Assembly: GCA_036320915.1 (NCBI GenBank)
Contig: JAXBDG010000004.1
Span: forward strand, 2,108,001 to 2,172,000
Direction of reading: 5' to 3'
DNA: 64,000 nucleotides
DNA from: Linnemannia elongata
Lineage: Eukaryota > Mortierellomycota > Mortierellomycetes > Mortierellales > Mortierellaceae
Translations under genes and position numbers: made by a program
Part shown: positions 3,938 to 59,189 of the stretch, piece after piece
Numbering within the stretch: the first letter of the stretch is position 1
How the letters are laid out: each line of letters opens with the position of its first letter
The notes under the pieces: model-generated
What the model saw: the letters and a program-made list of their open reading frames with translations, nothing else
Databases searched by the model: none
Told to the model about the DNA's origin: nothing

Positions 3938-6904
3938 ATGTTTGACTCGGCTCCTAACAGAGAAAAGATGGTGAGCTCGGTGGCCAAGCTGAGCAAGGTT
4001 GCTCAAGTTCTTAAGTACCGCCCTCAGGAAGGGAAAGCCCCTTGGGACCAGGCCAAAGACACACTCGTCCACTATGACTACATCGTCCTCGGTGGTAAGG
4101 CTTCAATTTTGCTCTTTACGATTTTCAGAACTGAGGCTAGTTCCGTTTGACATGGATTGTGAATGAGAAGAGAAGGGGGTGTCTCTGCAATTTCTCCTTT
4201 TTTTTCATTTGTCTCTCGCTTCCTACTCCATGTCTTGTACGCCACCATTTTCCTTCTCGGCTGGGTTCCAAAAAGTCCCCTTGAATCACTACTCACTTTA
4301 CTGCTCTATGACATAATTAGGTGGTTCCGCGGGTTCGGTGATGGCGAGTCGACTGGCGGAGGATCCCGCCGTGAACGTCCTTGTCCTCGAAGCCGGGTAT
4401 TCGGATGAAGTACTTGCCTCTCGAGCCCCTGGACTCTACAGCACCATCTTCCAGACTGACGCAGACTGGAACTACGAGACCGTCCCTCAGACCCACGCCG
4501 GGAACCGGACCATGATGCAACCACGTGGAAAACTCCTCGTAAGCTCAGCTAGGTGTTGTTGTTGTTGGTAGACATGGTTGCATTATGTGTCTCTCTTTCT
4601 ACATTTATTAATAGTTGCGGTACATGTATGTCGCTGCTGCGCGCGCAATAAAAAATAGGGCGGCTGTTCATCTATCAACGCCATGATGTATCATCGAGGC
4701 CCTGCATCGGATTACGACGAGTGGGAAGCCTTAGGCAACTCGGGCTGGTCCTTCAAGGAATGTCTACCCTATTTCAAAAAGTCGGAAGGATTTAATGACC
4801 CCAACTTATCAACCGACCACCCCCGCGGCCCGCTCACCAACCGTGTTCGTTACCTTGAGCTGGAAACCTTTGACCCTCAGGCACATGGAACAGAAGGACC
4901 TTGGCAAGTGACCTTCCACCACCTGTTCCATCTCTCGAACCGCTTTGTTGTTGCAAGTCAAGCCGAGGGTATCCCGTTCAACAAGGATTTCAATGGTGAT
5001 TCGACACTGGGCGTCAACAGGATTCAGACGTTCATTCAACGGGATGGTATTCGCAGTTCTCTGTCGAGGGCGTTTTTGAGGTCAGAAGATGTTGTGCCTG
5101 GGGGCAAGAATGGTCGTGGTCGAGTGCGCGTCGTGTTTGGCGCTGATGCGAAACGGATCCTATTCCAGTGCAAGCGAAGGGTCATGATGGCGACTGGAGT
5201 TGAGTTTCTTGACCACAGCAACGGTATGTCCTCTTTTTTACAACCATTACAGCACATCGTACCCCACTTTTTGGTCGGACACACAAATCAAAAGGATAAT
5301 ACGGCACAAATGAGCAACAAACTGCCCCTATCTGCCTGAACTGAACCTTGAGGGAAATGTTAATTTTCGCTTGTATTCCTATGTTTGGGCAGATGCTCCT
5401 CTATGTTTGGTCACTTGTCCGGAAGACCCTTTTTCTTCTCCAAAATGACAGCCTAACTTTTCTTTTGCATTGTTTATCAACAATCGATACATAGTCCGAA
5501 GAAGAGTCATGGCTACCAGAGAAATCCTTCTCTGTGGTGGTGCCTTTGGATCGCCTCAACTCCTCTTGGCCTCTGGTGTTGGACCCTCTCCTCAACCCTC
5601 TATCCCTCATTTCCACACCCTGGCCGGTGTGGGTGCCAACCTGCAGGACCACCTCGGATTGAGTGTTACTTTCCGTGCTCGAGATCGCTGTCAAACACTG
5701 AACCAGGAATACGGAGCGTACAATGCCATGAAATCACTCTTCACCTTTGTCACAAGTGGTACGGGTCCCTTGACGACCCAGATCGGAGAGGGTGTCATTT
5801 TTGTTCGGCTGGAAGATATTGCGCCCGAGTGGGTGGCACAGGAGAGGGCCAACGGCACATACCAAGAGCGGGCGAGTGGACCTGGGTCACCTCATCTAGA
5901 GGTCATCCTCTTGCCGGGCTATGTCCGTCGTCACGGAACCATTCTGGCACCTGACTTCAAGAACTACTTTACGGTGACCGCATTGCTGATGAACCCATGT
6001 TCCTCCGGAACCTTCAAGATTGCTTCCAAGTCTGGAAAGCAAGGTGGCGTGGATGTGAAGGGAGTGGTGGATCCCAACTACCTGGCAGAAGCGTTTGATG
6101 CGAGAGTGTTGGCTCAGGGAGTCAAGTTTATTCGCCGGATCGTGCGTCGACTGAACAACGACCCAGATGTGGGCAGTCGAGAGGTGTTCCCAGGCGAAGC
6201 AACTGTGCCAGATCATGACGACAAGGCTTTGGAGAAGTATGCTCGTGAGGCGGCGGAGACATACTACCACCCTGTCGGAACATGCAAGGTAGTAATTCGT
6301 TCTTTTTTTATCACCCAATTTCTGGCTTGAGCACATCTATCTTTTCCTCTCCATATTCTTCGCACCCTTCTTCAACTCCTTCGCTACGCTCCATTCATTC
6401 CCCTCTGTTCAAGTTATCGATTGGCGGTTACTCCTTGGGCTGTGCCAACGGGTCTGACTCTGGTTGTTTCATGGTAACCCCGGATTACGGGAATTCCTTG
6501 TCATCACCAGCTCAGACCTCTTTTCTATCTCTTAATATTTTTTTTCTTTCCTGTTCTGAAGTGTTTAGCCACTAACTCGGAACATATCACCTGTCTCGGA
6601 CTGTACATGCCCTAATTTTCATTATTTTTTTTTTTGCCCCGCTCCCTTCCTCGCTTATTGCAAATAGATGGGCCCGGCATCAGACCCAATGTCAGTCGTA
6701 GACAGTCGACTGAATGTGCACGGAATTGAGCGCCTTCGAGTGATTGATGCGAGTGTGATGCCCAAGCTGGTGGCGGCGCATACGTGCGCCCCGACGGTGA
6801 TGATTGCCGAGCGTGCGGCAGATTTTATCAAAGAGGATTGGTCATCTTCCTCCCGAGGTGCAACAAGAGTCCAGACCATTACCATTGCCGAGGCCAGGCT
6901 CTGA
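3938..6904 (+). CDS. GMC-family FAD-dependent oxidoreductase
   Basis: Flavoenzyme of the glucose-methanol-choline family (choline dehydrogenase / aryl-alcohol oxidase-like); the substrate cannot be told from sequence. Exons: 3938-4094, 4321-4538, 4659-5223, 5495-6288, 6668-6904, giving 656 aa, normal for the family. The FAD dinucleotide fold is complete across the first intron (YDYIVLGGGSAGSVMASRL, then VLVLEAG). GMC signature 1 is present (GKLLGGCSSINAMMYHRG), as is signature 2 (GAFGSPQLLLASGVGP). The C-terminal active-site pair is YYHPVGTCKMG, split by the last intron, and AAHTCAP. A His stands where many members have Asn (GNTNAP), giving a His-His pair. No clear signal peptide follows the chosen ATG. 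An in-frame upstream codon at 3824 would add a stretch that looks like leader sequence. It is probably cytosolic or mitochondrial. Confidence 0.88.
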
Positions 6905-18011: not shown

Positions 18012-18256
18012 GGTGAACTGTAAACGATAGGTGGATAGCAAGAAGATGTGAGAAGTGAAGAAGTGAGAAATAAAGAAGCGAGAAAGAAGCGCACTTAGTC
18101 ACGCGTTTTAAATACTCCCTGTCCTTGCAATTACAGAAAAAATCATGCATTTATAGAATTAAAGAACGTGAGCGTTCCACGTGATCTTGTGACCGTCATT
18201 TATGAGGCTTAGTTGGCACAAAAACATCAGAAAAAAATCTTTAAGCATCTGAATTT

Positions 18257-18329
18257 GCTCGCTTAGCTTAGTCGGTAGAGCGTTGTGCTAATAACGCAAA
18301 GGCCGCAGGTTCGATCCCTGCAGTGAGCA
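18257..18329 (+). tRNA. tRNA-Ile (anticodon AAU)
   Basis: Intronless 73-nt gene. The acceptor stem GCTCGCT/AGTGAGC has one G-T wobble and discriminator A. D stem GCTT/GAGC, anticodon stem TTGTG/CGCAA with loop CTAATAA (anticodon AAT), T stem GCAGG/CCTGC with loop TTCGATC. The A box (TAGCTTAGTCGG) and B box (GGTTCGATCC) are canonical. A run of seven T at 18336-18342 is a good Pol III terminator. It sits in the left arm of the palindrome with its original 5' flank. Confidence 0.95.
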
Positions 18330-18335
18330 TTCTTC

Positions 18336-18342
18336 TTTTTTT
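18336..18342 (+). terminator. Pol III terminator of left tRNA-Ile
   Basis: T7 run starting 7 nt after the discriminator base of the left tRNA-Ile. Confidence 0.75.
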
Positions 18343-19002
18343 CTGTCTCTCTTAAAAATGGTCGGAAAGGACAGAACACTAACTTTTCCTTTTTTTTTCT
18401 CTCTCTCTCTCTCATTCATAGACGCTAGGTCACCATCCTTCGCACAAGAACACGCACGGGTCGCTTTGTCTTTTTGTCGTGGTGCCGTCGAGAAAGTTTA
18501 GGATATACCCAGGTCCTCTAGTAAGGTTTTGTCTTTTGATGAAGGTAGCCGCGGCCAGCACAGGTGACAGATTTTTATTTTATTTTTGCCGGTTGTCGTC
18601 GACAGAACGCGAAAACACGAACAACATAAATGATATGGCAGGCGTTTCGTGGTTTTTTCATATTTGTGTTCTAGAGCGAATCTGAGAAACAAATCAGCAC
18701 GAGCGTTCCTTTATCATTTCTATTTCTCTAGACACTGTTCCTCACCTTTCAAAGTTGTAATTGGGAAGACGTGCTCAAACAGTCCGTCGTTCTATGAGAA
18801 GTGTTGTATTCCCAGACGATTACTTCATTGAGATACGAGATACATGATGGGATTGAATCTGTTGTTCAAAAACACCCATTGAGTGAGAAATAGCTGCAAA
18901 AAAACGAGGAAGAAAAAAATCTGGATAGAGAACGATTGCTTATGAAAGTTGCCCATAGGAAAAAGCTCGAGACACTAAGACAAGAGTCTGAGCATACCTA
19001 TT

Positions 19003-19077
19003 ATTGCCAGACATTAACTTCATTGAGATAGAGAAACAGAGATGTAGCATTATCCAACAGGAAAGACGACTGGAAAG
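19003..19077. other. Palindrome spacer with diverged internal repeat
   Basis: 75-bp loop between the two arms. It includes CCAGACATTAACTTCATTGA (from about 19007), a diverged copy of CCAGACGATTACTTCATTGA found inside the left arm at about 18812, and so also in the right arm. The turn point of the inverted duplication therefore lies in a pre-existing short tandem repeat. Confidence 0.7.
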
Positions 19078-19737
19078 AATAGGTATGCTCAGACTCTTGT
19101 CTTAGTGTCTCGAGCTTTTTCCTATGGGCAACTTTCATAAGCAATCGTTCTCTATCCAGATTTTTTTCTTCCTCGTTTTTTTGCAGCTATTTCTCACTCA
19201 ATGGGTGTTTTTGAACAACAGATTCAATCCCATCATGTATCTCGTATCTCAATGAAGTAATCGTCTGGGAATACAACACTTCTCATAGAACGACGGACTG
19301 TTTGAGCACGTCTTCCCAATTACAACTTTGAAAGGTGAGGAACAGTGTCTAGAGAAATAGAAATGATAAAGGAACGCTCGTGCTGATTTGTTTCTCAGAT
19401 TCGCTCTAGAACACAAATATGAAAAAACCACGAAACGCCTGCCATATCATTTATGTTGTTCGTGTTTTCGCGTTCTGTCGACGACAACCGGCAAAAATAA
19501 AATAAAAATCTGTCACCTGTGCTGGCCGCGGCTACCTTCATCAAAAGACAAAACCTTACTAGAGGACCTGGGTATATCCTAAACTTTCTCGACGGCACCA
19601 CGACAAAAAGACAAAGCGACCCGTGCGTGTTCTTGTGCGAAGGATGGTGACCTAGCGTCTATGAATGAGAGAGAGAGAGAGAAAAAAAAAGGAAAAGTTA
19701 GTGTTCTGTCCTTTCCGACCATTTTTAAGAGAGACAG

Positions 19738-19744
19738 AAAAAAA
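19738..19744 (-). terminator. Pol III terminator of right tRNA-Ile
   Basis: A7 on the plus strand (T7 on the tRNA sense strand), mirror of the left terminator. Confidence 0.7.
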
Positions 19745-19750
19745 GAAGAA

Positions 19751-19823
19751 TGCTCACTGCAGGGATCGAACCTGCGGCCTTTGCGTTATTAGCACAACGC
19801 TCTACCGACTAAGCTAAGCGAGC
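19751..19823 (-). tRNA. tRNA-Ile (anticodon AAU), rebuilt by retrotransposon target duplication
   Basis: Identical in sequence to the left tRNA-Ile, opposite strand. Its nucleotides 1-25 (19823-19799) are one copy of the retrotransposon target-site duplication, so the gene is full length although an element was inserted into it. Its natural 5' flank has been replaced by the 3' end of the element; A and B boxes and the T-run terminator are intact, so it should still be transcribed by Pol III. Confidence 0.95.
19799..19823. repeat. Target-site duplication, 3' copy (25 bp)
   Basis: Identical to 27771-27795. It equals tRNA-Ile nucleotides 1-25 (acceptor 5' strand plus the whole D arm, including the A box). 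It borders the 3' end of the retrotransposon. Confidence 0.92.
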
Positions 19824-19881
19824 CTCACATTTCTGTGAGGTGATTTATTGCGGAGCACCCCATTCCGACGCAGTGGAATGG
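19823..19881 (-). other. Tandem stem-loops at the retrotransposon 3' end
   Basis: CCTCACA/TGTGAGG (19823-19829 with 19834-19840, 4-nt loop) begins at the tRNA junction. CCATTCC/GGAATGG (19860-19866 with 19875-19881, 8-nt loop) follows. In many LINEs a 3'-terminal stem-loop is the RT recognition signal; that role is inferred here. Confidence 0.65.
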
Positions 19882-20198
19882 TATTCTCCAAGCCAAAAGA
19901 AGTAGGATTCATATTCTAGGTGGTATTGTAGATAAGCGCAACATTCGCCTGGAAACCGAAAAATGACCTACCTCGGGCCCCGAGAAGCAGGGTCCAAGGC
20001 GGCGGGGGGAAGGGTGATGAAACCAAACAATAAATGGGTATGGAGAAGTAGTAGTACACGGGGGGGAAAGGGAGGGAAGAGAGATAGAAAAAAATAAAGA
20101 CTAAGACTAAAAAAGTAAAAAATAATAAATAAGAACCAGAATAATAAAAAATAGATAAAGAGAGAAATGAGGAGAGAGCGAGGGCGGATATAGGCTAC

Positions 20199-20669
20199 CT
20201 AACGGTGAGTCCAGTACGCGCTGACCGCTTTTCCAAATGTGGCCAAGGCCTCTTGGTAGGCTTGAAGGTGAGGGTCTGGGGTGTGGAAGCGGATGTCTTC
20301 ACGGAGACTGCGTTCATGTTCTTGGAGGTAGCTGGTTTGGGTTGACTCGTCTCCCTTCTGAATACGATCGTAGAGTTCCGTCGTGGCCCGGCGCCACTGA
20401 CGCTGCAGCGACTCTAGGAAGCTTTCGGGTGGAGCCAGCGTGGTTTGGGCAGCGGAAGGAGAGGGGTGGACTTGGGTCTCGTCCAGGACTGGAGTCTCGT
20501 CTGTCTCGGATGTGAGGTCTACGGGCGCCTGTTGAGAGACGAAGGACTTGTTCGGGTCTTCGTTGTCGCTGGCCGAGGCGGACGGGTCGCGATCTTCAGG
20601 CTTGGGTTGGGGGTTGGATCGTTTGGCCGTGTAGGACTTGCGGGAGGTGGAGGGACGTTGGTCGGTCAT
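20199..20669 (-). CDS. Retrotransposon ORF4, unknown function
   Basis: 156-aa ORF starting with a true ATG, between a ~50-nt poly(A) tract upstream (20707-20756 on the sense strand) and the 3' UTR. The first half is polar and disordered (Ser/Pro/Thr/Lys, acidic). The second half is helical and charged (SFLESLQRQWRRATTELYDR, then HERSLREDIRF) with a possible coiled coil, ending in AVSAYWTHR. No known domain is recognised. It could be a short nucleic-acid chaperone or structural protein, or a captured host fragment. Confidence 0.55.
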   Translation of the reverse strand: MTDQRPSTSRKSYTAKRSNPQPKPEDRDPSASASDNEDPNKSFVSQQAPVDLTSETDETPVLDETQVHPSPSAAQTTLAPPESFLESLQRQWRRATTELYDRIQKGDESTQTSYLQEHERSLREDIRFHTPDPHLQAYQEALATFGKAVSAYWTHR

Positions 20670-20706
20670 GTTGTTGTGTTGGAGGGGGAAAGAGTGTTGA
20701 GGGTGT

Positions 20707-20755
<49 letters not shown>

Positions 20756-20756
20756 C
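20707..20756 (-). repeat. Long poly(A) tract (sense strand) ahead of ORF4
   Basis: About 47 uninterrupted T on the plus strand, ending about 40 nt before the ORF4 ATG in element sense. It is followed by a CA/CT-rich leader (CACCCTCAACACTC) resembling the one before ORF2. Confidence 0.85.
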
Positions 20757-21167
20757 GAATGGGGAGAAAAAAGAAAGGGGAATGGAAAAAAAAGGCCAAA
20801 AAGACTGTGGAGGTGCGAGAATGGGACGAATGAGGCAGATGGCAAAAGGATGTAAGGAGGAGATGGAGGGCGAGGGGTGTGAGAATGGAGAGGGTAGTGA
20901 AAGAGAAGAGAAGAAAAGAGGAAAGTGGGAATGACCGATTCACCACTTTTTAAATGTCGAGTTGCCAATGCCTCATGGTCATGTTAAAGTCGAGATGAAT
21001 GGATTGCTTGCATGAGGTGAAAGTGAGAATGGCGTGATGGAGAGCCTCATGACATGATTGGTTGAAGAATGAAATGACAAGGAAAAGAGGTTTGCATGAA
21101 TGGGAAAGAAAAGAAAAAAAGATGGCGGAGGAGGAAAAAAAAGGGGAAAAAAGAAAAAAGAGATCAC

Positions 21168-22286
21168 TTACTCCTCGTGTTCCTCCAGTCCTTCTGCCTC
21201 TGGCTCAACTGTGTCCCAGATGTCTCCAAAAGTTACGCCGTCCTTGGTCACCATGATATGAGGTTCCACTTCCCACTCCTTCTTCATCTTGTCGTAGTAA
21301 TGGTCAGGGTCCTCGGAAAAGAATTGCAGCGAGGCCGCCGTCGTAGATGCCTCTCTTCTCTTCTGGTCCCTGTAAAAGGCGCGCGCCAACTCGACCTGGG
21401 CCCTGTGTTTGATCGCGAAAAAGGTCATCCAGTGCAGCTGGTTTCTGTAGAGACTCTCCTTGTCTCCCAGCTTGCAGTAGGTGCGCCAAATCGTGTTTGT
21501 GGCAACAGAGTGGATGTGGACCACCACCGGGTGAATCTCTTCCACTTCTGGCCAGCAGAGCAAGAGCTGATTTGGGTCGGCACTCCAGTATGTGTCTGGT
21601 TGTAGCTGGCTAACCCATTCATGGACTTGCTCCCAGAGAGAAAGGACGGTGGAGCATCCGTGGAAAGCGTGGCGACGAGACTCAAAGACAGGCTCGGCAG
21701 TAGGGTCGTTTGGGTCGGGGGGGCAGCGACGGCAGCCAGGTTCGGTTTTATCCGCACCTCTGTACTTGTATAGTGATTTGATCCCGTTGGTCTGAATCAC
21801 ATTGTGAGCAAACAAGTACAAAAAGTCTTTTTCTTTGGTGTATCGCTGCGGGGCGTGCAAGCGAGAGAAAAAGACTTTCCACTGCTCATCGGGGATTTTC
21901 GTCCGTTTCTCTGCTCCTGTTGTTGGGTCCTCCGCCACATCCTTCAGACGCATGTTCTTGAAGACCGGAGGCTGTTTGTAAATGGCCTTGGGGGTTGGGG
22001 ATTTGCAGCGGATGGCAAGAGACTTCTTGTCCATCCATCGCCGAGCTGTCTTGACTTTGAAGGACGCCACTGGGTTCTTGCCCGCGTAAAAGGTCACTGG
22101 CTCTCCTGCCACAGTAGCTGCCGCTCTAGACGGGTCAAGGGAGGCAAAGGCGCGCGTTGCCATCCTGATGGATGGGGTTTCAAAGATAAAGTTGGGGTTG
22201 ACGTGCTCGGCTCGTTCTGCTGAGGGTTTTTGTAGAAATCGGATTGTGGCCGGTTGGGAGTCCAGTTCAAATGTGCGTCGGGCCAT
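21168..22286 (-). CDS. Retrotransposon ORF3 with stand-alone zf-RVT-like zinc-binding domain
   Basis: 372-aa ORF with a true ATG. Its middle part reads as the reverse-transcriptase zinc-binding (zf-RVT) domain that normally closes the RT polyprotein of plant and fungal LINEs: WKVFFSRLH, then FLYLFAHNVIQTNGIKSLYK, then CRRC (C185, C188), HAFHGC (H206, C211) and SLWEQV. After it come helical segments with Trp/Tyr (HIHSVATNTIWRTYCKLG, HWMTFFAIKHRAQVELARAF) and an acidic tail. It is separated from ORF2 by 453 nt with stops in frame. The stop codon overlaps a perfect donor-like GTAAGT, so a spliced form cannot be excluded. It probably supports template binding during reverse transcription; expression as a separate protein is unusual. 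Confidence 0.75.
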   Translation of the reverse strand: MARRTFELDSQPATIRFLQKPSAERAEHVNPNFIFETPSIRMATRAFASLDPSRAAATVAGEPVTFYAGKNPVASFKVKTARRWMDKKSLAIRCKSPTPKAIYKQPPVFKNMRLKDVAEDPTTGAEKRTKIPDEQWKVFFSRLHAPQRYTKEKDFLYLFAHNVIQTNGIKSLYKYRGADKTEPGCRRCPPDPNDPTAEPVFESRRHAFHGCSTVLSLWEQVHEWVSQLQPDTYWSADPNQLLLCWPEVEEIHPVVVHIHSVATNTIWRTYCKLGDKESLYRNQLHWMTFFAIKHRAQVELARAFYRDQKRREASTTAASLQFFSEDPDHYYDKMKKEWEVEPHIMVTKDGVTFGDIWDTVEPEAEGLEEHEE

Positions 22287-22739
22287 GTGTCGCGTCCTAT
22301 ACCATAGTCAGATCATGACTGTCGACTCTTGTTATGATTATGTCGCGTCGTACAACACGATCGGTCGACTCTTAAGAGTGATCGATCGACTCTTGGTGCG
22401 ATCAGGCAAACTTGGGCGCAGTTGTCTTCGCCCAAGTAAATAATTAATTAACATAGCCACAATCATACTTATATATAGTCAGTATCCAGATAGTTTAATC
22501 CCCACTTAGTAACTTGAACTACCACTCGAATATACTTTGTCACCACCCTGAACCCGATCCCTACCCTGTAACCTTGCCCTAAATAACACTCTGTCAACAC
22601 CTTGAAAACCACCTCTGATTCTTGCTCCATTTGCCCTACCTTTGTCCTACCTCTGTCCTGCCTTTGTCCTGCCTTTGTCCTGCCTGGCCCTGCTTCCTAG
22701 CACTGAGAGGTCAATCTTCGTCTGCCCTGTCTGCCCAGT
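22287..22739 (-). other. ORF2-ORF3 spacer with hairpin and short repeats
   Basis: 453 nt with stops in all useful frames. It holds a perfect 9-bp hairpin (ACTTGGGCG at 22410-22418 with CGCCCAAGT at 22429-22437), three direct copies of TCGACTCTT (22322, 22365, 22386) and a TTTGTCCTGCC-type tandem repeat (about 22633-22683). It may serve reinitiation or internal entry for ORF3; this is inference. Confidence 0.65.
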
Positions 22740-25535
22740 CTAGGTTCGCGACACCATGTGTGTGAATAGATCCTTCCATCGCAGATCCTCGTTCTTCCAC
22801 CTAGCCAGCCACTTGGCCCTTAGCGCCGCACACTGGGATCGAACGTTGATCAGGTTCCAGCCGCCCTTGATGCGAGGTTGATGGAACCATCCCAAGGAAA
22901 CTCGTGTTGTCCGACCATCCCACAGCAACTTTTTGGTGATGGTGTCGACCTTGTTGAAAAAGTCGTCCGAGAGCTGGTAAAAGGGGGCAACGTGCCAGAG
23001 CTTGGAGAGAAAGTAAGTGTTGGCCACCACCACTCGGCCCGAGAAAGATAGGCGGCGGGTATGCCACGCAGCAACCGTTCTCTCCAGATCCCTCAGGATA
23101 TCCTTCTCAATAGGTTCCATCTGCCTTCCTGTGGGTTGGATCATTACGCCGAGGTGCTTGAATGCTGTGCCGTAGGGAAGCCATTTGAACCGGGGAAAGT
23201 CGAACGCCTCTTTCGCTCCTACCGTCAGTGGTATCGCCTCCGTCTTGTCTGCGTTGATCTTGGCTCCCGACGCTCGCTCGTGCAGCCTGATCGCTCTCTT
23301 CGCTACACCCTCATCCCCCGGCCTCAGTCCAAGAATGGTGTCGTCTGCAAAGGCCCCCACCTTGACGGGCGTTGCTATTGTTTCGATCCCTTTGGCGTGA
23401 AAGTCGAAAAAGAGAAGGAAGGGCTCAAGCACCAGATTAAATAAAATCGGCGCGAGCGGATCCCCCTGACGCAGTCCACGCTCAACCGTATAAGGAGCCG
23501 ACTGGCGGCCATTCAGCAAGAGTCGGGCGCTCAGGTTGGTGTAGCAGCATCGGATCCAGTTTCTAATCCTGGGTCCAAATCCAAATCTCTCCAGCACTCG
23601 ATGTAGGTAGGTCCACTCAACTCGGTCATAGGCCTTTTCCTGGTCCAGAGATAGCAGCATCGCCTCGCCCTTGCTACCGTCTTCCACGTGTTGTGTCAAA
23701 AGATCCAACAACATGATGTTGTCATGTCCTTGCCGGCCAGGGATGAATCCCGTCTGCCATTTCGCAATAACAGAGTCGGCCGCCGGGTTGATCCTATTGG
23801 TGAGTGTCTTGGTGAAGATCTTGTAGTCGGTTTGCGTTAAAGAAATGGGGCGATAGTTTTTCATCATCTCCTGGTCGCCGTTCTTTTTGAAGATCAGGGT
23901 GGTGAGGGCAAGGCGATGAGAGGGCGCGAGAGATCCTGATTCGCTGTCGATCGCGTTGAAGAGCTCAAGAAGAATGGGGGCCACATCCCCCTTAAACGTC
24001 TTGTAGAACTCGTACGGTAGTCCATCAGATCCAGGGGATGATCTATCGTCCATCGAGTCGATCGACTCACAAATCTCCTCAAGCGTTAGATCCATCTCCA
24101 TTCTGGCTCGGGATCCTGCTGGCACTGTATTGACCACACACTCCAGTAGCTCTTCCTGTGCTCTCTTGTCTGTTGGTTGTGACTTGTAGAGGTTGGTGTA
24201 GAATGTTCGTGCAATCTCTGACATTGAGTCCGCCTCACTCGTTGGGACCCCATCTGCGTTCTTCAGTGCCTTGATCGATTTCCTATCCCTGCCTGCCTTC
24301 AGTCTCTTGGTAAAGAATGGTGACGGACGCTCTCCTTCCTCGATCCACTTGACCTTGGCCATGGTCGCAACGTGATCCAGGTGGTCCTTCTCCATCTGGT
24401 CGAGCTCACTAATCGCCTCCAAGTGAGCTTCGACTGCTGCAGGATTGTTTGGGTTGCTGTCCAGTTGTCTGTCGGCCTCCTTCACCGCCGTTTGAAGCCG
24501 AGTCCTTTGTCTTCTGTTGGCATTGCGAGTTTTGTTTCTGTGTTGTTGACCAAGTAGTAGAAAGCGCGCCTTGCATACATCCCAGAATGCGCCTACCGAC
24601 TCAAAGGAGAGAGGATTATTGGTGCGTTTTGTAGATAGGTGCTGGATGGCTGCTCGGATCTCCGTCCTGAATCCCGCGTCGGCCAGGACGCGTGTGTCCA
24701 GCGAAGGAGCGGCGTTTGGTCGGGGTTCCTTTGGTCTGGGTGAAGAGTTGATCGTGGCCGAGACCAAACGATGGTCAGAGTTGACGATGGGGGCCGTGAT
24801 CACATTGTATAGAGAGACGTCGCGAACCATTGCCTGCGAGACGAAAATGTAGTCGATCCGAGTCATCAGGTTGTTGGTTGTCGTGCGGGTAAAGTGTGTA
24901 AAGTGAGTCTCCAGAATATTGTCGTCTTTGTCCCTGGGAGCGGGCGGGGCAGTATCGACAATGTTGAGCCGGTCAAAAAGGGGAGCGTACAGTTTCCATC
25001 TGGACGCATCACATCTTGTTGAGGGGGGGCTTCTATCCTCATTGTTGTCCTTAATGGTGTTGAAGTCTCCAAGAACAATCTTGTGGGGATGAGTGTTGAT
25101 CGCGTCGACGGGGAATAGGTCAACAAACTGATTCCGTGTTTTTCTGATCTCGCCATTCTTAGCATTGCTACGGTTGTTGTTGGCGGGAGCATAGACGTTA
25201 ACCACTCGAATGGTGTCGTCGATGTTATTATCGCAGGCAATATCGACGGAAAGGACCCTCCCTTGTAGGAATTCCTGAGTGTTGTGTATGGACAGGCGGG
25301 TGTTGTTGACAAGGATAGCACACTCGTCTGAGATGGCCATGGGGGCGTTCCACTCCTTCTTCCACTTCTCCTTCCGAGACTGTGGCATGGTGGAACTGAC
25401 GGCCAGCTCCTGGAGGGCGATAATGTCGTAATCGTTTCTGGTGCGGAGCCATTGGAAGAGCTGGTGCCGCATGGTTTCGTTGACTATAGAGTTAACGTTT
25501 AGGGTACACACGCGTAGATCTTTGTAACAAAACAT
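22740..25535 (-). CDS. Retrotransposon ORF2: APE endonuclease - reverse transcriptase
   Basis: 931-aa replication protein. The first true ATG is 25535 (ATG TTT TGT TAC); the longer open frame begins with a non-ATG codon. The N-terminal APE/exonuclease-phosphatase domain has its catalytic motifs in order: TLNVNSI, ALQELAV, VNVYAPANN, VLGDFNTI, TRIDYIFVSQ and NSDHRLVSATI. After a Glu/Arg-rich linker comes the RT: NYRPISLTQTDYKIFTKTL, TGFIPGRQGHDNIMLLDLL, LSLDQEKAYDRVEWTYL, GLRQGDPLAPILFNLVLEP, GAFADDTILGL (FADD at residues 729-732) and FKHLGVMI. The frame ends shortly after the RT thumb region (GGWNLINVRSQCAALRAKWL) without the usual zinc finger, which is found in ORF3. No frameshift or internal stop is seen. 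Confidence 0.95.
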   Translation of the reverse strand: MFCYKDLRVCTLNVNSIVNETMRHQLFQWLRTRNDYDIIALQELAVSSTMPQSRKEKWKKEWNAPMAISDECAILVNNTRLSIHNTQEFLQGRVLSVDIACDNNIDDTIRVVNVYAPANNNRSNAKNGEIRKTRNQFVDLFPVDAINTHPHKIVLGDFNTIKDNNEDRSPPSTRCDASRWKLYAPLFDRLNIVDTAPPAPRDKDDNILETHFTHFTRTTTNNLMTRIDYIFVSQAMVRDVSLYNVITAPIVNSDHRLVSATINSSPRPKEPRPNAAPSLDTRVLADAGFRTEIRAAIQHLSTKRTNNPLSFESVGAFWDVCKARFLLLGQQHRNKTRNANRRQRTRLQTAVKEADRQLDSNPNNPAAVEAHLEAISELDQMEKDHLDHVATMAKVKWIEEGERPSPFFTKRLKAGRDRKSIKALKNADGVPTSEADSMSEIARTFYTNLYKSQPTDKRAQEELLECVVNTVPAGSRARMEMDLTLEEICESIDSMDDRSSPGSDGLPYEFYKTFKGDVAPILLELFNAIDSESGSLAPSHRLALTTLIFKKNGDQEMMKNYRPISLTQTDYKIFTKTLTNRINPAADSVIAKWQTGFIPGRQGHDNIMLLDLLTQHVEDGSKGEAMLLSLDQEKAYDRVEWTYLHRVLERFGFGPRIRNWIRCCYTNLSARLLLNGRQSAPYTVERGLRQGDPLAPILFNLVLEPFLLFFDFHAKGIETIATPVKVGAFADDTILGLRPGDEGVAKRAIRLHERASGAKINADKTEAIPLTVGAKEAFDFPRFKWLPYGTAFKHLGVMIQPTGRQMEPIEKDILRDLERTVAAWHTRRLSFSGRVVVANTYFLSKLWHVAPFYQLSDDFFNKVDTITKKLLWDGRTTRVSLGWFHQPRIKGGWNLINVRSQCAALRAKWLARWKNEDLRWKDLFTHMVSRT

Positions 25536-25639
25536 TAAAGATATATGTGGGGGTGTGTTGTTGAGGGTGGGGGGGGACAAGGCGCACAAGGAGGGTTTGA
25601 GAGGCGGGTGTGAGGATAAAGAGAGGATGGGTGCGGGTG

Positions 25640-25745
25640 ATTTTTTTTTTTTTTTTTTTTTATTTTATTTAACTAAACACACAAAGGTGCTATATCAAAG
25701 AAAACAGAAAGAAAAAAAAAAAAAAAGAACCAAAAGGCAGGAGAG
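25640..25745 (-). repeat. Poly(A)-rich leader ahead of ORF2
   Basis: On the sense strand this is T-rich then A-rich homopolymer DNA (plus strand T20 around 25641-25660 and a purine/A run around 25702-25730), followed by a C/CA-rich leader up to the ORF2 ATG. It has the same arrangement as the ORF4 leader. Confidence 0.65.
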
Positions 25746-25919
25746 GCGGAGCACCTTCATTCCCAAAGGAATAACATAGAGTCAAACCCAATTAGATCCC
25801 AACAATCATCAAGTCCATTATAGACAGGAGACCCTTGTGTCCAATCCCTTCCACACTCATCATCAGCACCTTCACTTACCTAGTCTCTGAGGGACCTTCC
25901 GACCTGTCCCCCTAATGGT

Positions 25920-27632
25920 TTATCCGGACCTGGGGTTCGACTTTTTGGTGGTTGCCCTGGAGGCCTTGGGGGTTGGTGTTGACTGGAAGATATTGCTCAT
26001 GCGGTCGTCGAGGTGCAGTCTCTTCGCTTCCTGCTTGTCTCGTCTGACCTGGCTTTTGGCTTGTTTGTCCCCCAATTTTGTGGTCATATCGGTGTCGTTA
26101 TCCTCAGGGATGTCATCGTAGTTATCTTCATCCTCGTCCATTTTTTCCTCCTGCCCTTTACCATCACTCTCGTGTTTATCTCCTTCTTCTGCCTCCTTAG
26201 AGGTGTTATCGGGAGCCATGGCGACGTCCTTAGCTGGGGTCTGGGGTTTGGAATGTGGCTCGGGGTGTGGTTGGTGTTGCTGATCGAGCTGGTGCTCGGG
26301 CTGTTGTTCGGTCTCTTGCTGTTGCTGTTCAGTATGTTGGTCAGGGGTATCGCCTAACGTGGCAGACTGAACGGCCGCGACTGCTTGGGCGGGCTCCTGT
26401 GTGGAGGCGGCCTCGGCGGTCTCGGCGGGTGCTACAGAAGGATCCACTCTTGTGAAAGAAGATGAAGAGATAGCAGCGGCAACGTTAAGATCCGATTTGG
26501 TTTGTTGGGCAGCAGACGATTTGGGACGAGGAGTACGAGTACTTCCCTGGTGTTGTGGAGCCTGCTTCCTGGGTGGCGGCTTTGGGGAATCACTATCCGA
26601 TGCCGATGTGTTCCCACCACCCGAGGAAGCATTGCGGCTCCTCTTATTTTTACCTCGTCCCGCCATTTGCCATTCGGTTTCGGTGAACGAGACCTGTTTT
26701 GGTGTAGCTGACCCTGTCATAAACGGAGCATTCTTCTTGATGGGCTCTCGAAGGGGAGCGTCGGGGTCCGGAAGGGCACGTGCCATGATGGGCTCCCCTA
26801 GGGCAGCTGTGGTCGCCAGGTTGAAGTCGAGAGGTTTGGGGCATTGAGGCTTGGTGTGTGATCCTTCGCCGCAGCGGTAGCAAAATTTTGATCCGCTCCA
26901 TGAAAAGAGGACATTCATGGTGTCAACGAGGGCAACCCTAGGAATCAAGAGGTCCTGAGGGGAAGAGTGAGGAATCTCCAAGACAAAGTCGAATGATCTG
27001 GAGCGGATCGATGACCCATGCATATAGTGGTGGTTCACAAGCATAACTTTACCGAATGGGCCGAATACATCCTCTGCAATTTTTGCGCCATCATCAGATT
27101 GCAGGGGGGTGTACTCAGCGCGAATCTTGAGCCTGGAGCCAGCGGAGTACATAGTTGGAAGGATTGGGAGGGGGGACGGCAAGCAGTCCAGAGGGGTGCC
27201 CAGGGAAGTGGCCTTCTCTTCAGAAGAGCCAAAGCTGAGGAACACTGCCCCTCTTGTAGTTAGAAAGTCGATGCTTTTAGCATTGGGGAAAGACTTGATG
27301 GCGGCCTCAACAACATCGGTGACAGAATGGGTTTTGGTGTTGTAAGGGATAGCAACACTGAAGGGGTGGTTGTGGAGGGAGAACCAGACAGGGTCTGCCT
27401 TCTCCTGTCCTAGGGCCTCACGTGACTCCGTCTTGGATCGGAGGGAGTTCCAGGCGGCCTTGTTTGTGACTTTGTGTGCTCCCTTGTTCACCGCATCAGC
27501 AAAAGAGATTTTAGGGACGGAGGCTGAATTGGTTGGGGGGAGATCGGTGGGCGGAATGGGGGGATTGGGTCCTCCATCAATCTCATTCGCGAGAGATGAG
27601 GGAGGAGGAGGAGGGGTGGGTTTGTCTTCCAT
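25920..27632 (-). CDS. Retrotransposon ORF1: Gag-like protein with CCHC zinc knuckle
   Basis: 570-aa presumed RNA-binding protein that packages the element RNA. The first true ATG is 27632 (MEDKPTPPPPP); the frame upstream of it lacks an ATG. A Pro-rich N-terminus is followed by a folded region that may be RRM-like (FSVAIPYNTKTHSVTDVVEA, RGAVFLSFGSSEEKATS) and one CCHC knuckle, CYRCGEGSHTKPQC (C251, C254, H259, C264). The C-terminal half is low-complexity: Ser/Pro, then Gln/His/Glu-rich (EQQQQETEQQPEHQLDQQHQ), then strongly acidic (DEDEDNYDDIPEDNDTD) and a short basic end. Such composition suits nucleic-acid chaperone and condensate-forming activity. Large antisense frames here are mirror shadows of the GC-rich coding sequence. 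Confidence 0.85.
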   Translation of the reverse strand: MEDKPTPPPPPSSLANEIDGGPNPPIPPTDLPPTNSASVPKISFADAVNKGAHKVTNKAAWNSLRSKTESREALGQEKADPVWFSLHNHPFSVAIPYNTKTHSVTDVVEAAIKSFPNAKSIDFLTTRGAVFLSFGSSEEKATSLGTPLDCLPSPLPILPTMYSAGSRLKIRAEYTPLQSDDGAKIAEDVFGPFGKVMLVNHHYMHGSSIRSRSFDFVLEIPHSSPQDLLIPRVALVDTMNVLFSWSGSKFCYRCGEGSHTKPQCPKPLDFNLATTAALGEPIMARALPDPDAPLREPIKKNAPFMTGSATPKQVSFTETEWQMAGRGKNKRSRNASSGGGNTSASDSDSPKPPPRKQAPQHQGSTRTPRPKSSAAQQTKSDLNVAAAISSSSFTRVDPSVAPAETAEAASTQEPAQAVAAVQSATLGDTPDQHTEQQQQETEQQPEHQLDQQHQPHPEPHSKPQTPAKDVAMAPDNTSKEAEEGDKHESDGKGQEEKMDEDEDNYDDIPEDNDTDMTTKLGDKQAKSQVRRDKQEAKRLHLDDRMSNIFQSTPTPKASRATTKKSNPRSG

Positions 27633-27770
27633 TAGATGGAAAGAGAGGGGTGAGTGAGGGGAAGAGAGTGGAGGCCTTTTGGTGTCTGGCCGTAGCAAAT
27701 TGGTGTTGTGAGTATGGATATAGGATACGGGACCACAGTTTATTGCACAAATGTGGTAGAAGGGAAAGGT

Positions 27771-27795
27771 GCTCTACCGACTAAGCTAAGCGAGC
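27771..27795 (-). pseudogene. tRNA-Ile 5' fragment; target-site duplication, 5' copy
   Basis: 25 bp identical to tRNA-Ile nucleotides 1-25 and to 19799-19823. It borders the 5' end of the element and is followed by the original tRNA 5' flank (27796-27908). It lacks the anticodon arm and B box, so it is not a functional gene. Confidence 0.93.
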
Positions 27796-27908
27796 AAATT
27801 CAGATGCTTAAAGATTTTTTTCTGATGTTTTTGTGCCAACTAAGCCTCATAAATGACGGTCACAAGATCACGTGGAACGCTCACGTTCTTTAATTCTATA
27901 AATGCATG
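27796..27908 (-). repeat. Outer segment of right palindrome arm
   Basis: 113-bp inverted copy of 18144-18256 (the 5' flank of the left tRNA and part of the glyoxalase upstream region). Similarity stops at 27908/18144, which marks the true outer limits of the inverted duplication. Confidence 0.93.

Positions 27909-30887: not shown

Positions 30888-30936
<49 letters not shown>

Positions 30937-45618: not shown

Positions 45619-45671
<53 letters not shown>
45619..45671. repeat. Long T homopolymer
   Basis: Uninterrupted run of about 53 T, one of the longest homopolymers in the window. Confidence 0.85.
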
Positions 45672-54532: not shown

Positions 54533-57500
54533 ATGTCGTATCACGGACACAACCAGCACGGACAGTTCCCCGGATCCGCTGCTCGGGCGTTCCCCCAACA
54601 CCCGCAGGCCAGCAACAGCCAGATCCCCGGACTCGCCCAAAACCACAGTGCTCAGCAACAACAGCAACAGCAACAACAGCAGCAACAGCAGCACCCCCAA
54701 CCTCAGTATGCAACGCATCTCCAGCAGCACCACAACCCAAATAGCAACAATTTCAGTCTCCCATTGACAGCCAGCGGCTACAAACTTGACACTCCTCGGG
54801 ACGCGAGGCAAGGCACTGGTCTGCAAGGAGGCTACAACAGTATGTCTAATGGCGGCTGGCATAGCTCCACTGACATGACAGGATTCGGCCAAACGCACCC
54901 TAGCAGTCAACTGTCGCACATGTTGACCCAATCCCATCACCCAACGTCGCAGGCGTCGCTTTCTTTATCGCAGCAGTACTCCCAACCGCAACAACAGCAG
55001 CAACAACCTCAACAGCAACCTCCGCATCAGCAACCGCAGCAACATCAGCAGCAACCGGCATTCCTCTTTCCAACTCACAGTCAATCGCCTACCCATGTTC
55101 GCGTACGTGCTACGTTTTTAATCATATCTTGGCCGCCGCGCTAATCAAATGAAACCGAACATAGCAAAAAGTCTTACTGTTTGCCTTTTCTGCCAATCTA
55201 TTCTCTATAGGCACAACAAACTCAAGCACAGCAGATCCAGCAACAGCAGCAACAACAGCAGCAGCAACAACAGCCTCAGCAGGCTCAGCAGGCTCAGCAG
55301 CAACAGCAACAGCCCCCGTACAACAGCCACCACTCGTCACAGCAGGGCTCACACCACTTCTCATCTGCCATGGTGTCGCCAGCCTCGCAAATGTCGCGCC
55401 AGCAACAGCCTTCTCAGCAAAGCATGGTGGGATCAGGACTCAAGACACCCACCTCAACCTCACTCGGTGGTGTCGGCTCGGTAGGTCGAGGATACCTCGA
55501 CACGCTCTCGACTGGACCCAACACGCCTACGTTTGCTGGTACAAATAACAGCTTCTCAATGACCAACATGCCGAACCTCAGAAATGCTTACGGCGCAGAG
55601 GATGAGGTCACCAACTTTACAAAGGTACTTTCATTCATCGCCTGCCAATCTGGTTCGCAGACAAGGAAGGAGAACCAGGATAAATTTTTAACGATTGTTT
55701 TTTTTATAAACTGTTTTCGTTTGGTATTGTGTAGGGAGGAAATCTGATTTCTAGCGATGACAGTCCTCTCGATGTTTACCCCCCGCTGAATGGAGCTCCT
55801 CAGAGTAACCAGGTCCCAGCCGCTAATAGATACCAGCCCGCCAGGCCTAGTAGTAATCCAGTGACACCAGGACGTTTGCCACACGACATGCGGTCAGGAC
55901 CCAGCGGACATGTGTTCAACAGCAATAGCAGCAATAGTAACCCAACGACATTGTCTCAGAACCAGCCCCTGCCATCGTATGATCAACGGACAGCAACTCC
56001 AGCAATGAGTCTCAAGGGCGATGTGATGATTGGAGGAGGAGTTACACCCAACAGTGCTCAGCATCAACCACAATCTTCTCGCCACCTGAACCAGCCTTTG
56101 CCTCAGTCCCCGTACTCGTACCACTCGACCCAACAGTCGCCACAACAGCCCTACCCATCCCCTCATACATCGATTCTCCCCCAGCCCCAGCATCAGCATC
56201 CTCACCAGCAGAATACCCCTCCCGGACAATCTGCTATAACCCCTAAGGAGTCTCCTCAGCTCCCAGCTCCCAAGGTTGTGGCAGTGGAGCCTGAGCCCAA
56301 GAAGAAGCAGCCAAAAGCTCCCAAAGCTGCTACTGGCACCAAGAAGGCTGCACAGGGTAAGAAGAATTCCAAGGCGCACCTGGAGACCATTCCTTCTCCA
56401 GACACGGGACGAGCGGAAACAGGACCATCGCATCCTATGCCTTCGCCCTACAGCAATGTGAATTCATCCGTATCCAATCATAACCGGATGTACAGCAACT
56501 CGTTGACGCCCGCCACGCTTGCACAGCATCAGCAGCAGTACCCAAGTTTCCAGCAGCAACACCAGCCCTCGCCTCCTCATTTGATGCAAGGCTCGCTTCA
56601 GCAGCAACAACAGCAGCATCAACAACAGCAAGTCCAGCATCAGCAGCAACAGGTCCAGCAGCAACAGGTTCAGCATCAACAGCAACAACAACAACAGGCT
56701 CAGCAGCATTCGCAACACCTGCAGCACCAGGCTCATCAACAACAGCATCCGGCCCATCAGCCTCACTCACAGCAGGCCCAGCAACAAGTGCCGCCACACT
56801 TGCAGCATCAGCCAGCCCCTCAGCATTCAGCGCACCAACAACAACAACAGCCACCACAGCAGCAGCAACAACATCAGCAGCAGCAGCCACCGCAGGTCCA
56901 GGCACATCAGCAGCAGCAGGCTCAGCAGCAACAGCAAGTCCAACAGCAGCATCAACAGCAGCAGCAGGTTCAGCAGCAGCAGCAACAACAACAACAGGCA
57001 TTGAGACACCAAAGAAATGAAAGCTTCGACACGAATGCTAGATCGATGGTTCAGCCTGTCAGCGTACCTCCTACGCCTCCTGTCCCTGTCCCTGTCCCTG
57101 AACCCACGCCAGAGAAACCCAAGGGCAAGGGCCGTGGCCGGAAAAAGAAGGTCGTTGAGGCGCCACCTGCTGCATCTGCGCCTGCGCCTACACCACCCGT
57201 CCCTCCTGCGCCGGCTCCTATCCCTCCGCCTGCGGCACCAGCTCCCACTCCTATGACTCGACCCACTGTGATGCCAGCTCTACCTCAAACATCCTCGGCA
57301 CCCAAGATGACCAAAGCGCAGGCATTGCAGCAGCGCCAACAGGAGCAAGCACAGGCGCAACAACAGCAACAGCAATTGCAGCAACAGCAATTGCATCAAC
57401 AACAGCAGATGCAAATGCAACAGCTTCAGTTGCAACAACAACAGCAACAGCAGCAACAACAGGCTTTGCAACAGCAGCAACAACAGGCAAAAGCTCTGCA

Positions 57501-59189
57501 GCAGCAACAAGCACAACAACAAGCTCAGCAGTTGCAGCGCCAACAGTCCACGTCGTCCATTCCAACGCCTCCTGCTCCCACCCCTGCCCCAAAGATGTCC
57601 AAGAAGAAGGCCGCTGCACAAGCTGCCGCACAAGCTGCACAGCAAGCCGCCGCACAGCAGGCCGCACAGCAGGCAGCGCAACAGGCCCAGCAACAAGCTC
57701 AGCAGCAGGCCCAACAGCAAGCCGCACAAGCTGCACAGCAGGCCCAACAGGCTCAGCAGTTCTACCCAAGCCAACCCAATGCTGCTCTGCCTTTGTCTCA
57801 GCCTGGTCTCCACCCCTCTGGTCGACCTAAGCGTCCTCCAAATGCCTTCTTGGTCTTTTCTAGTGTGCGTCGTCCCGAGCTCCAAAAGATGTACCCAAGT
57901 CACAAGACTGCTGTCCTCAGTAAGCGTCTTGGAGAAGAATGGCGTAGCATGAGCAACGTAAGTTCATCCAGGCATTTTAAGAAACCACTTGACTTCTTGC
58001 GTTTTATTAGGAGTTGGATTGTATTTTTTTTTAACCAAGATTGTCTTTCTTTTTATTTGGAATCATCCAGGAACGCAAATCGCTTTATACCTCTCGTGCA
58101 AAGGATATCAAGGACACTTTCCAGACAAACCACCCTGATTACGTGTACACTCGTCGTTCTTCCAAGAAGCGTGCACTCAACGATGTTGATGCTGGACCCT
58201 CCAAGAAGTACAAGAGCGGTGACAACGTAAGTTCATCCCATGTTGTCACTTGTGCATGAATGATGTTGTAGGCCAATTGTTCAAGTCAACTAACGTGAAA
58301 TGAAATTTTGTCGTTCATATGATAGTACGCCGACAATCACAACGGCAGCGGCAACGGCAGCGGCAATAATAACAATGCCAACAGTGCCGCACATTTGGCA
58401 GCGGCCCTTGGACTGGATCCTAACCGCCCCAGACGTCCCATGAACTCGTACCTGATTTTCAACCAAGAGATGCGTCACAAGTTGCTGCTTGACAATGCTA
58501 ACCTGACAGTAAGCGAGATCTCTCGGGCGATTGGACAAAAGTGGGCCAGCATGACGCCAGAAATGAAGCGCGAGTACACGGAAAAGGCGGCCGCGATCAA
58601 GTCAAACTTCCTGAAGGAGCATCCAGATTATGTGTACTCTCGCCGAAGCAAGGCTGAGATTGCCGCCTCTGGAGCCGCGCGCCGTCGCGGAGCTGTTCCC
58701 CTTTCTGGCGCATCGCTTGCCAAGCAGCAACAGGCTCTCGCTCGCAGTGGCGCTCTTGCGGCTGCAAACGCAGCCAGTTCAGCTAGTGGTGGCGCTGGTG
58801 GGGCGAATCATGCAGCCAATCATGCTTCCAACAGCCATGCGAGCACCTCGCGGGCTAATGGCGCAGGTGCTATTGGTGGTGGTGGACTGGATGTGGCGAT
58901 CAATGGCAAGGATACCAAGGGCCGTAACAAGAAGCGCACCAAGGACCCCGATGCACCTAAGCATCCTATTCCTGGCTTCTTGTTTTTCCGGTCTGGCGAG
59001 CGGGCGCGCATTCGTGCAATGAACCCGAACCAGCCGATCCCCAAGGTTGCGGCGACGTTGTGGAACGAGATGACGCCTGCGCAGCGGGAACCCTGGTTGC
59101 AGAAGGCGGCACAGGACAAGCAACGTTATGCGGAGGAGATGCAGGCGTACTCTGCTAGGAAGGGTCGCATGGGCAAAGGGCGGTCGTAA
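54533..59189 (+). CDS. Gln-rich triple HMG-box protein
   Basis: Very large (1408 aa) probable chromatin or transcription regulator. Exons: 54533-55102, 55211-55624, 55735-57957, 58071-58226, 58326-59189, all phase 0. The first ~1070 residues are disordered, dominated by Gln with His/Pro/Ala runs (many CAG/CAA repeats at 54653-54690, 55227-55310, 56598-56995 and 57341-57760), with basic islands (KKKQPKAPKAATGTKKAAQG and KGKGRGRKKK) that could be AT-hook- or NLS-like. Three HMG boxes follow: RPKRPPNAFLVFSSVRRPEL, then RPRRPMNSYLIFNQEMRHKL with IGQKWASMTPEMKREY, then PDAPKHPIPGFLFFRSGERA with VAATLWNEMTPAQREPWLQ. Box 1 is split by an intron after EEWRSMSN. Target genes are unknown. Glutamine tracts suggest activation or condensate behaviour; that is inference. 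Confidence 0.9.

What the first reader, a model, noticed from the sequence alone, without database searches (positions are those of the whole stretch)
19799..27795. Non-LTR retrotransposon inserted precisely into a tRNA-Ile gene, with the tRNA rebuilt by a 25-bp target duplication
Both ends of the 7.95-kb element carry the same 25 bp, equal to tRNA-Ile nucleotides 1-25 (5' acceptor strand plus complete D arm and A box). One copy completes the downstream tRNA; the other is a tRNA stub joined to the original flank. The element 3' end therefore abuts the mature tRNA 5' end. Since Pol III promoters are internal, the host keeps a working tRNA. Dictyostelium TRE elements also target tRNA genes, but they insert at a distance and do not rebuild the coding sequence.
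Basis: partly seen in the sequence, partly recalled or inferred. Interest (0 to 1): 0.88.

Follow-up and report, generated by a model that had tools for sequence, protein, structure and literature searches.

The report
Retrotransposon that rebuilds its tRNA target
In a fungus that is probably Linnemannia elongata, an L1-type jumping gene sits inside a tRNA-Ile gene with the tRNA's first 25 bases copied at both ends, so the tRNA gene is complete again and is predicted to keep working; a second, internally deleted copy sits at the same base of another tRNA-Ile gene, so the element likely targets this site.

Summary
A 7,947-bp APE/RT non-LTR element (minus strand, 27770 to 19824) lies between two identical 25-bp copies of tRNA-Ile(AAU) nt 1-25. 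The 3' copy completes an intact tRNA; the 5' copy is a stub.

With the two flanks joined, the right arm equals the left over 186 of 186 bases.

A second copy on contig C12, internally deleted, has identical junctions but different flanks: 2 of 12 tRNA-Ile(AAU) genes are occupied. Four searches found no other copy of the family. Another L1-like family in this genome has poly(A) ends in 9 of 10 rows printed and no tRNA gene in the loci scanned.

The element has no poly(A) tail and ends in a hairpin flush with tRNA nt 1. Both inferred nicks follow GAGC. Sequence-specific TPRT is the best explanation; tRNA function and 3'-end formation are untested.

tRNA-gene-specific non-LTRs are known (TRE, NLTR-A, NeSL-1_TV, LIN15/25_SM); an APE/L1-type element cutting at the mature tRNA boundary and regenerating its target is a new variant.

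The parts
19824..27770 (-). Non-LTR retrotransposon, 5' end 27770, 3' end 19824, 7,947 bp including a nested 466-bp insert
   Evidence: bounded by exact 25-bp duplications; the first 317 and last 299 bases are identical at the second copy on C12
27771..27795 (-). 5' target duplication: tRNA-Ile nt 1-25 stub joined to the original host flank
   Evidence: identical to tRNA nt 1-25; flank 27796-27908 identical to the flank of the other tRNA-Ile at 18144-18256
19799..19823 (-). 3' target duplication: nt 1-25 of the complete tRNA
19751..19823 (-). complete tRNA-Ile(AAU), A box nt 8, B box nt 53, T-run downstream
   Evidence: ARAGORN; boxes, downstream T-run
25920..27632 (-). ORF1, 570 aa from ATG: two predicted RRM-like domains, CCHC knuckle, C-terminal helix
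   Evidence: model and fold matches are of the near-identical C12-copy protein P0089; homologues named in Mortierellaceae
22754..25535 (-). ORF2 first part from ATG: APE endonuclease and reverse transcriptase (the frame runs on into the insert to 22740)
   Evidence: Pfam PF03372 and PF00078; L1 ORF2p E 2e-69; ATG
21168..22286 (-). ORF2 C-terminal part, separated from the first part by the nested insert
   Evidence: 62% identical to relative P0004 from residue 925 on
22288..22753 (-). nested 466-bp terminal-inverted-repeat insert (TGTCGCG...CGCGACA) with 5-bp duplication CATGG, splitting ORF2
   Evidence: same repeat, whole or in part, at many other places in the genome
19824..19839 (-). 3'-terminal hairpin CUCACA-GAAA-UGUGAG, flush with tRNA nt 1; AATAAA at -26 to -21 from the end; no poly(A)
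   Evidence: z -2.35 for the last 120 nt; identical at the C12 copy
18144..18330 (+). left palindrome arm: tRNA-Ile(AAU) with the same 5' flank, uninterrupted (empty site)
18257..19823 (.). near-perfect palindrome (97.8%) joining the two tRNA-Ile genes tail to tail; continued beyond the element by 27796-27908

Best explanation
This is an L1-type (APE endonuclease plus reverse transcriptase) non-LTR retrotransposon lying in a tRNA-Ile(AAU) gene between two exact copies of tRNA nt 1-25, and it most likely inserted by sequence-specific target-primed reverse transcription that regenerates the tRNA gene it enters. Inferred steps: the endonuclease nicks the template strand at the boundary between flank and tRNA nt 1; the freed 3'-OH primes cDNA synthesis from the exact, non-polyadenylated 3' end of the element RNA; the coding strand is then cut after nt 25. 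Both nicks follow the same four bases, GAGC. The 25-nt stagger is filled in as a duplication, which leaves a dead stub upstream and a complete tRNA downstream with its internal promoter and terminator. The exact 3' end likely comes either from RNA that reads into the tRNA and pairs with the nicked target, or from RNase P cutting at tRNA nt 1.
For: Exact 25-bp duplication with unambiguous edges. In-window empty site: right arm with the two flanks joined equals the left arm, 186/186. Second copy with identical 5' and 3' junctions in another tRNA-Ile with different flanks. The 2 copies found by four own-genome searches are both at this site; 2 of 12 tRNA-Ile(AAU) genes occupied. APE and RT domains; alignment to human L1 ORF2p over residues 25-936 in which the endonuclease N, E, DFN, D and SDH motifs and the RT FADD motif line up (which residues are catalytic is recalled). 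No poly(A) at either copy, and a terminal hairpin, while another L1-like family in the same genome has a poly(A) run in 9 of 10 printed rows, and no tRNA gene was found in 17 of the 28 non-family loci held.
Against: Only two copies, both now damaged (nested insert; internal deletion), so specificity rests on n = 2. No RNA data: tRNA expression, RNase P cleavage and read-through are untested. AATAAA lies at -26 to -21 from the 3' end, as if the RNA could be polyadenylated, although no A-run is present at either copy. Flanks of relatives P0004-P0009 and P0090-P0100 could not be fetched, so the target of the wider lineage is unknown. The control loci reach only about 1.5 kb beyond the match and may miss element ends; 11 of 28 were not scanned. 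An ORF1 search of the genome did not complete.
Confidence: 0.85

Rival explanations
1. Tethering, as in Dictyostelium TRE5-A: the element is brought to tRNA genes by Pol III factors such as TFIIIB bound upstream, and the endonuclease cuts wherever it is held, with little sequence specificity of its own.
For: TRE5-A is an APE element listed under L1 whose ORF1 protein interacts with TFIIIB subunits (PMC5911963, passages). NLTR-A of D. purpureum lands 2-6 bp upstream of tRNAs (PMC5006619, passages).
Against: The tethered elements described there land outside the tRNA, over a range of positions; here both insertions are at the identical base of the same isoacceptor and the cut lies inside the gene. 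The 9 tRNA-Thr loci hit by the 3'-end query match over the tRNA only, without element sequence. With n = 2, tethering plus a local sequence preference is not excluded.
Confidence: 0.12
2. One insertion only; the second copy arose when a tRNA-Ile gene was converted by the first, using tRNA homology at both ends.
For: Copies are 98-99% identical outside the deletion, and homology at the breakpoints is tRNA sequence.
Against: The upstream homology would be only 25-26 bp; flanks differ on both sides; the copies differ by indels as well as substitutions.
Confidence: 0.08
3. Assembly artefact around the palindrome.
For: Inverted repeats are prone to misassembly (general knowledge), and only one arm carries the element.
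Against: The identical element-tRNA junctions exist on another contig in different flanks; the ORF1 of the family is a protein on record from a contig of C12's exact length.
Confidence: 0.03

Closest known systems
Dictyostelid TRE5/TRE3 and NLTR-A
   Same: non-LTR elements of APE type that target tRNA genes, listed under L1 in PMC5911963; NLTR-A comes within 2-6 bp of the mature tRNA (PMC5911963 and PMC5006619, passages)
   Different: They insert outside the tRNA (TRE5 40-54 bp upstream in the opposite orientation, TRE3 40-150 bp downstream, NLTR-A 2-6 bp upstream); TRE5-A and TRE3-A end in oligo(A); NLTR-A carries an RNase H domain and PMC5006619 could not place it in a known subgroup. Here the cut is inside the gene, in the same orientation, with no A tail, and the tRNA is rebuilt.
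NeSL-related tRNA-gene-specific elements NeSL-1_TV (tRNA-Pro), LIN15_SM (tRNA-Arg), LIN25_SM (tRNA-Glu)
   Same: non-LTR elements specific for a tRNA gene (PMC4640811, passage)
   Different: That paper treats them as related to NeSL, a clade it lists as RLE-encoding; here the endonuclease is APE-type. Whether their duplications rebuild the tRNA is in a supplementary figure I did not see.
Target-specific elements Mutsu (5S), Keno (U2), Dewa (tRNA-Leu spacer)
   Same: exact targets in or near small RNA genes (PMC3706591, passage); Tx1-clade, APE-type (clade of these three recalled; that Tx1-clade target-specific elements are APE-type is in a passage of PMC4640811)
   Different: tRNA-Ile nt 1 is not among the targets named in the passages read; clade membership not tested, no named reference sequences were available.
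Dada DNA transposons
   Same: insert at fixed sites inside tRNA genes, including nt 8-13, and in tRNA-Ile of Perkinsus (PMC8869645, PMC3706591, passages)
   Different: DDE transposase, 6-7 bp duplications, not retrotransposons; described as disrupting the tRNA gene.
Bacterial genomic islands that integrate in tRNA genes and restore the 3' end (recalled)
   Same: target regenerated by duplicated tRNA sequence
   Different: site-specific recombinases and tRNA 3' ends, not TPRT and the 5' end.

Membership tests
L1-group (APE-type) non-LTR retrotransposon | N-terminal APE endonuclease followed by RT in one ORF | tested here: met
   PF03372 28-262 and PF00078 568-786; L1 ORF2p 8uw3 E 2.3e-69 over 25-936
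L1-group (APE-type) non-LTR retrotransposon | ORF1 with RNA-binding domains | tested here: met
   no Pfam hit; CCHC residues invariant in 12 aligned ORF1s; model with two RRM-like domains and Foldseek hits to tandem RRMs, best E 2.5e-5 and TM by target about 0.4, mean pLDDT 56
L1-group (APE-type) non-LTR retrotransposon | poly(A) or A-rich 3' tail (typical, not universal) | tested here: not met
   both copies end GTGAG directly at tRNA nt 1; so it is filed as L1-like, not canonical L1
TRE5 (Dictyostelium) | insertion 40-54 bp upstream of tRNA in opposite orientation | tested here: not met
   insertion inside the tRNA gene at nt 1/25, same orientation
NeSL clade | restriction-like endonuclease, no APE | tested here: not met
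   APE domain present; no further nuclease domain in Pfam at E 0.001 in P0001 or P0003
Tx1 clade | RT phylogenetic placement with Tx1 | not tested
   no named Tx1 reference; own lineage 100/100 with P0004-P0009 among 24 rows
Target-specific non-LTR retrotransposon | independent copies at the same base of a multicopy gene | tested here: met
   2 of 2 copies found, different flanks; small n
Dada DNA transposon | 6-7 bp TSD and DDE transposase | tested here: not met
   25-bp duplication; APE/RT protein

The most novel reading that the evidence does not exclude
Probability: 0.2. Interest if true: 0.85.

Novelty: new variant of a known kind. Interest (0 to 1): 0.66.

Why it matters
Gene-targeting elements of the kinds compared here either break their target copy (R1, R2, Dada) or land beside it (TRE, Ty). 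This one appears to enter a low-copy essential gene family (12 tRNA-Ile(AAU) genes) and leave each target gene complete, which would explain how an element can live in so few sites. It adds a base-exact tRNA specificity to the APE/L1 group. It offers an endonuclease with a defined 25-bp target to test, and it poses a direct question: does a tRNA supply the 3' end of a retrotransposon RNA?

Tried and rejected
Copies at other sites: 5'-end DNA, 3'-end DNA, 6.7 kb internal DNA (40 of 43 candidates scored) and ORF2 protein found only the window and C12 copies of this family. The other hits fall in the nested insert (query 4943-5412) or in simple repeats (query 1964-2076). The tool calls its repeat counts lower bounds. 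Other tRNAs as targets: the 3'-end query also hit 9 tRNA-Thr genes at 80-82% over the tRNA alone, without element sequence.

Pol III promoter in the element 5' end: the stub carries an A box, but no B-box match was found in the first 600 nt by pattern (best in the first 500 nt has 3 mismatches), so Pol III transcription of the element from the stub is not supported.

Relatives in viral contigs: none. Structure of ORF2: mean pLDDT 53, most of the RT region below 50, not used. The ORF1 protein and all-tRNA searches of the genome did not complete, so old ORF1-only fragments, other tRNA-Ile isoacceptors and stubs of other tRNAs were not surveyed. Literature: ten answered searches listed no paper whose title or opening abstract text describes a tRNA-rebuilding non-LTR element or a Linnemannia element of this kind. 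Three of the lists were shorter than the hits (17 of 18, 20 of 24, 12 of 24). I read passages only, of nine papers; Kojima and Fujiwara 2004 was not seen.
Full report
Where it is. The window is C27:2108001-2172000 of a 51.1-Mb, 32-contig genome. The host is named indirectly: the ORF1 protein is on record (100% identity as printed) as F5H01DRAFT_331492 of Linnemannia elongata, on a contig of 4,278,484 bp, exactly the length of C12 of this genome, and a host HMG-box protein in the window matches proteins of Mortierella and Lobosporangium (lineage Mortierellomycota).

The observation. On the minus strand the order is: host flank, 25-bp stub (27795-27771), element (27770-19824, 7,947 bp), complete tRNA-Ile(AAU) (19823-19751). 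The stub equals tRNA nt 1-25. The duplication cannot be lengthened: the bases next to it differ on both sides. The tRNA keeps A box, B box and a downstream T run.

An empty site beside it. The element sits in the right arm only. With the two flanks joined, the right arm equals the left over all 186 bases compared, so the pre-insertion site is seen directly: nothing was lost and 25 bp were duplicated.

A second copy. On C12 (1264139-1268330 from stub to second duplication) a copy that lacks about 3.8 kb of the window's sequence, the nested insert included, has the same first 317 and last 299 bases and the same 25-bp duplication in a different tRNA-Ile gene. Upstream, similarity to the window stops one base before the stub; downstream of the tRNA both are T-rich but differ. 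The 25-mer was found 14 times in the genome: 12 complete tRNA-Ile(AAU) genes and 2 stubs. So 2 of 12 are occupied, and the 2 copies found are both at this site. By my arithmetic, under uniform insertion and counting orientation, a second hit on one of 12 such bases in 51 Mb has a chance of about 1 in 10 million.

What it encodes. ORF1 (570 aa) has no Pfam hit. It carries an invariant CCHC knuckle, and a modest-confidence model of the near-identical C12 protein has two RRM-like domains. ORF2 has APE endonuclease and RT, aligning with human L1 ORF2p over residues 25-936. Its C-terminal part (21168-22286) is cut off by a later 466-bp insert with inverted ends TGTCGCG and a 5-bp duplication, a repeat found whole or in part at many other places in the genome. 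Relatives P0004-P0009 (48-78% identical) form one clade with it at 100/100 support among 24 rows. Another L1-like family of the same genome is a separate branch at about 31% identity. ORF1 relatives with names come from L. elongata, L. gamsii, Haplosporangium gracile, Mortierella sp. AD032 and M. antarctica, so the lineage occurs in several Mortierellaceae; whether those copies sit in tRNAs could not be seen.

Internal control. That other family shows a poly(A) run at its 3' end in 9 of 10 rows printed (L041 lacks it), in unlike flanks except that L042 and L045 share the bases after the A run. ARAGORN found no tRNA in 17 of the 28 non-family loci held. Eleven were not scanned, some loci overlap, and they reach only about 1.5 kb beyond the match.

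How it likely works. From the junctions, TPRT implies a first nick on the tRNA template strand at the nt 1 boundary and a second on the coding strand after nt 25 (inference from established TPRT). Both cuts follow GAGC, because tRNA nt 1-4 (GCTC) and 22-25 (GAGC) are reverse complements (sequence). tRNA-Thr, which begins GCCC in the loci printed, lacks the first of these, which may explain why it is not hit (inference). The element ends in a hairpin CUCACA-GAAA-UGUGAG flush with tRNA nt 1. No A tail is present, so the exact 3' start of reverse transcription needs another guide. [quoted passage not shown] Neither is tested. AATAAA at -26 to -21 speaks against both, if it is used.

What is known. 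TRE5, TRE3, NLTR-A and NLTR-B insert near, not in, tRNA genes (PMC5911963 and PMC5006619, passages). NeSL-1_TV, LIN15_SM and LIN25_SM are tRNA-gene-specific and related to NeSL (PMC4640811, passages). Dada DNA transposons insert inside tRNA genes (PMC8869645 and PMC3706591, passages). So tRNA-gene specificity of a non-LTR element is not new. The combination of APE/L1 type, a cut at the mature tRNA's first base and a 25-bp duplication that rebuilds the gene was not found in the passages read or the ten answered searches listed under Tried and rejected.

Possible older scars. In 6 of the 12 tRNA-Ile host flanks an 11-15-base copy of the tRNA 5' part (such as CTCGYTTAGCTT) lies 0-11 bp upstream of nt 1 (shuffle p 0.02 or less), against 0 of 9 tRNA-Thr flanks (lowest p 0.4). 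Of the other six, the two palindrome arms share one weaker match farther up (p 0.03-0.04) and four show none. The surroundings of the six look related to each other by eye, so this may be one or two old events; it hints at earlier insertions or repairs at the same base but does not prove them.

Verdict. Real, base-exact and recurrent (n = 2); a new variant of target-specific non-LTR elements.

Noticed in passing
window 18144-19823 and 27796-27908: Two tRNA-Ile(AAU) genes form a near-perfect tail-to-tail palindrome, arms about 0.9 kb, interrupted only by the element.
   Followed up: yes
window 22288-22753: 466-bp TIR insert (TGTCGCG...CGCGACA, 5-bp duplication CATGG) nested in ORF2; near-identical and diverged or partial copies at many other places in the genome.
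   Followed up: partly
L025, L026, L027, L028, L033, L034 just upstream of tRNA-Ile nt 1: Partial copies of the tRNA 5' part (such as CTCGYTTAGCTT) 0-11 bp upstream in 6 of 12 tRNA-Ile flanks, 0 of 9 tRNA-Thr flanks; possible scars of older insertions, maybe one ancestral event.
   Followed up: partly
L041-L048, L051, L053: Another L1-like family; poly(A) 3' ends in 9 of 10 rows printed, copies 95.9-99.9% identical to L042 over the aligned stretches, so probably recently active.
   Followed up: partly
C12:1264139-1268330 (L003, L040, L005): Second copy lacks about 3.8 kb including most of ORF2 but keeps ORF1, which is in the databases as a hypothetical protein of Linnemannia elongata.
   Followed up: yes
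window 20708-20755, 30893-30936, 45619-45671: Matching low-complexity tracts, one of them inside the element's 3' region.
   Followed up: no
window 55861-58230: HMG-box protein (789-aa ORF) with relatives in Mortierella and Lobosporangium.
   Followed up: no
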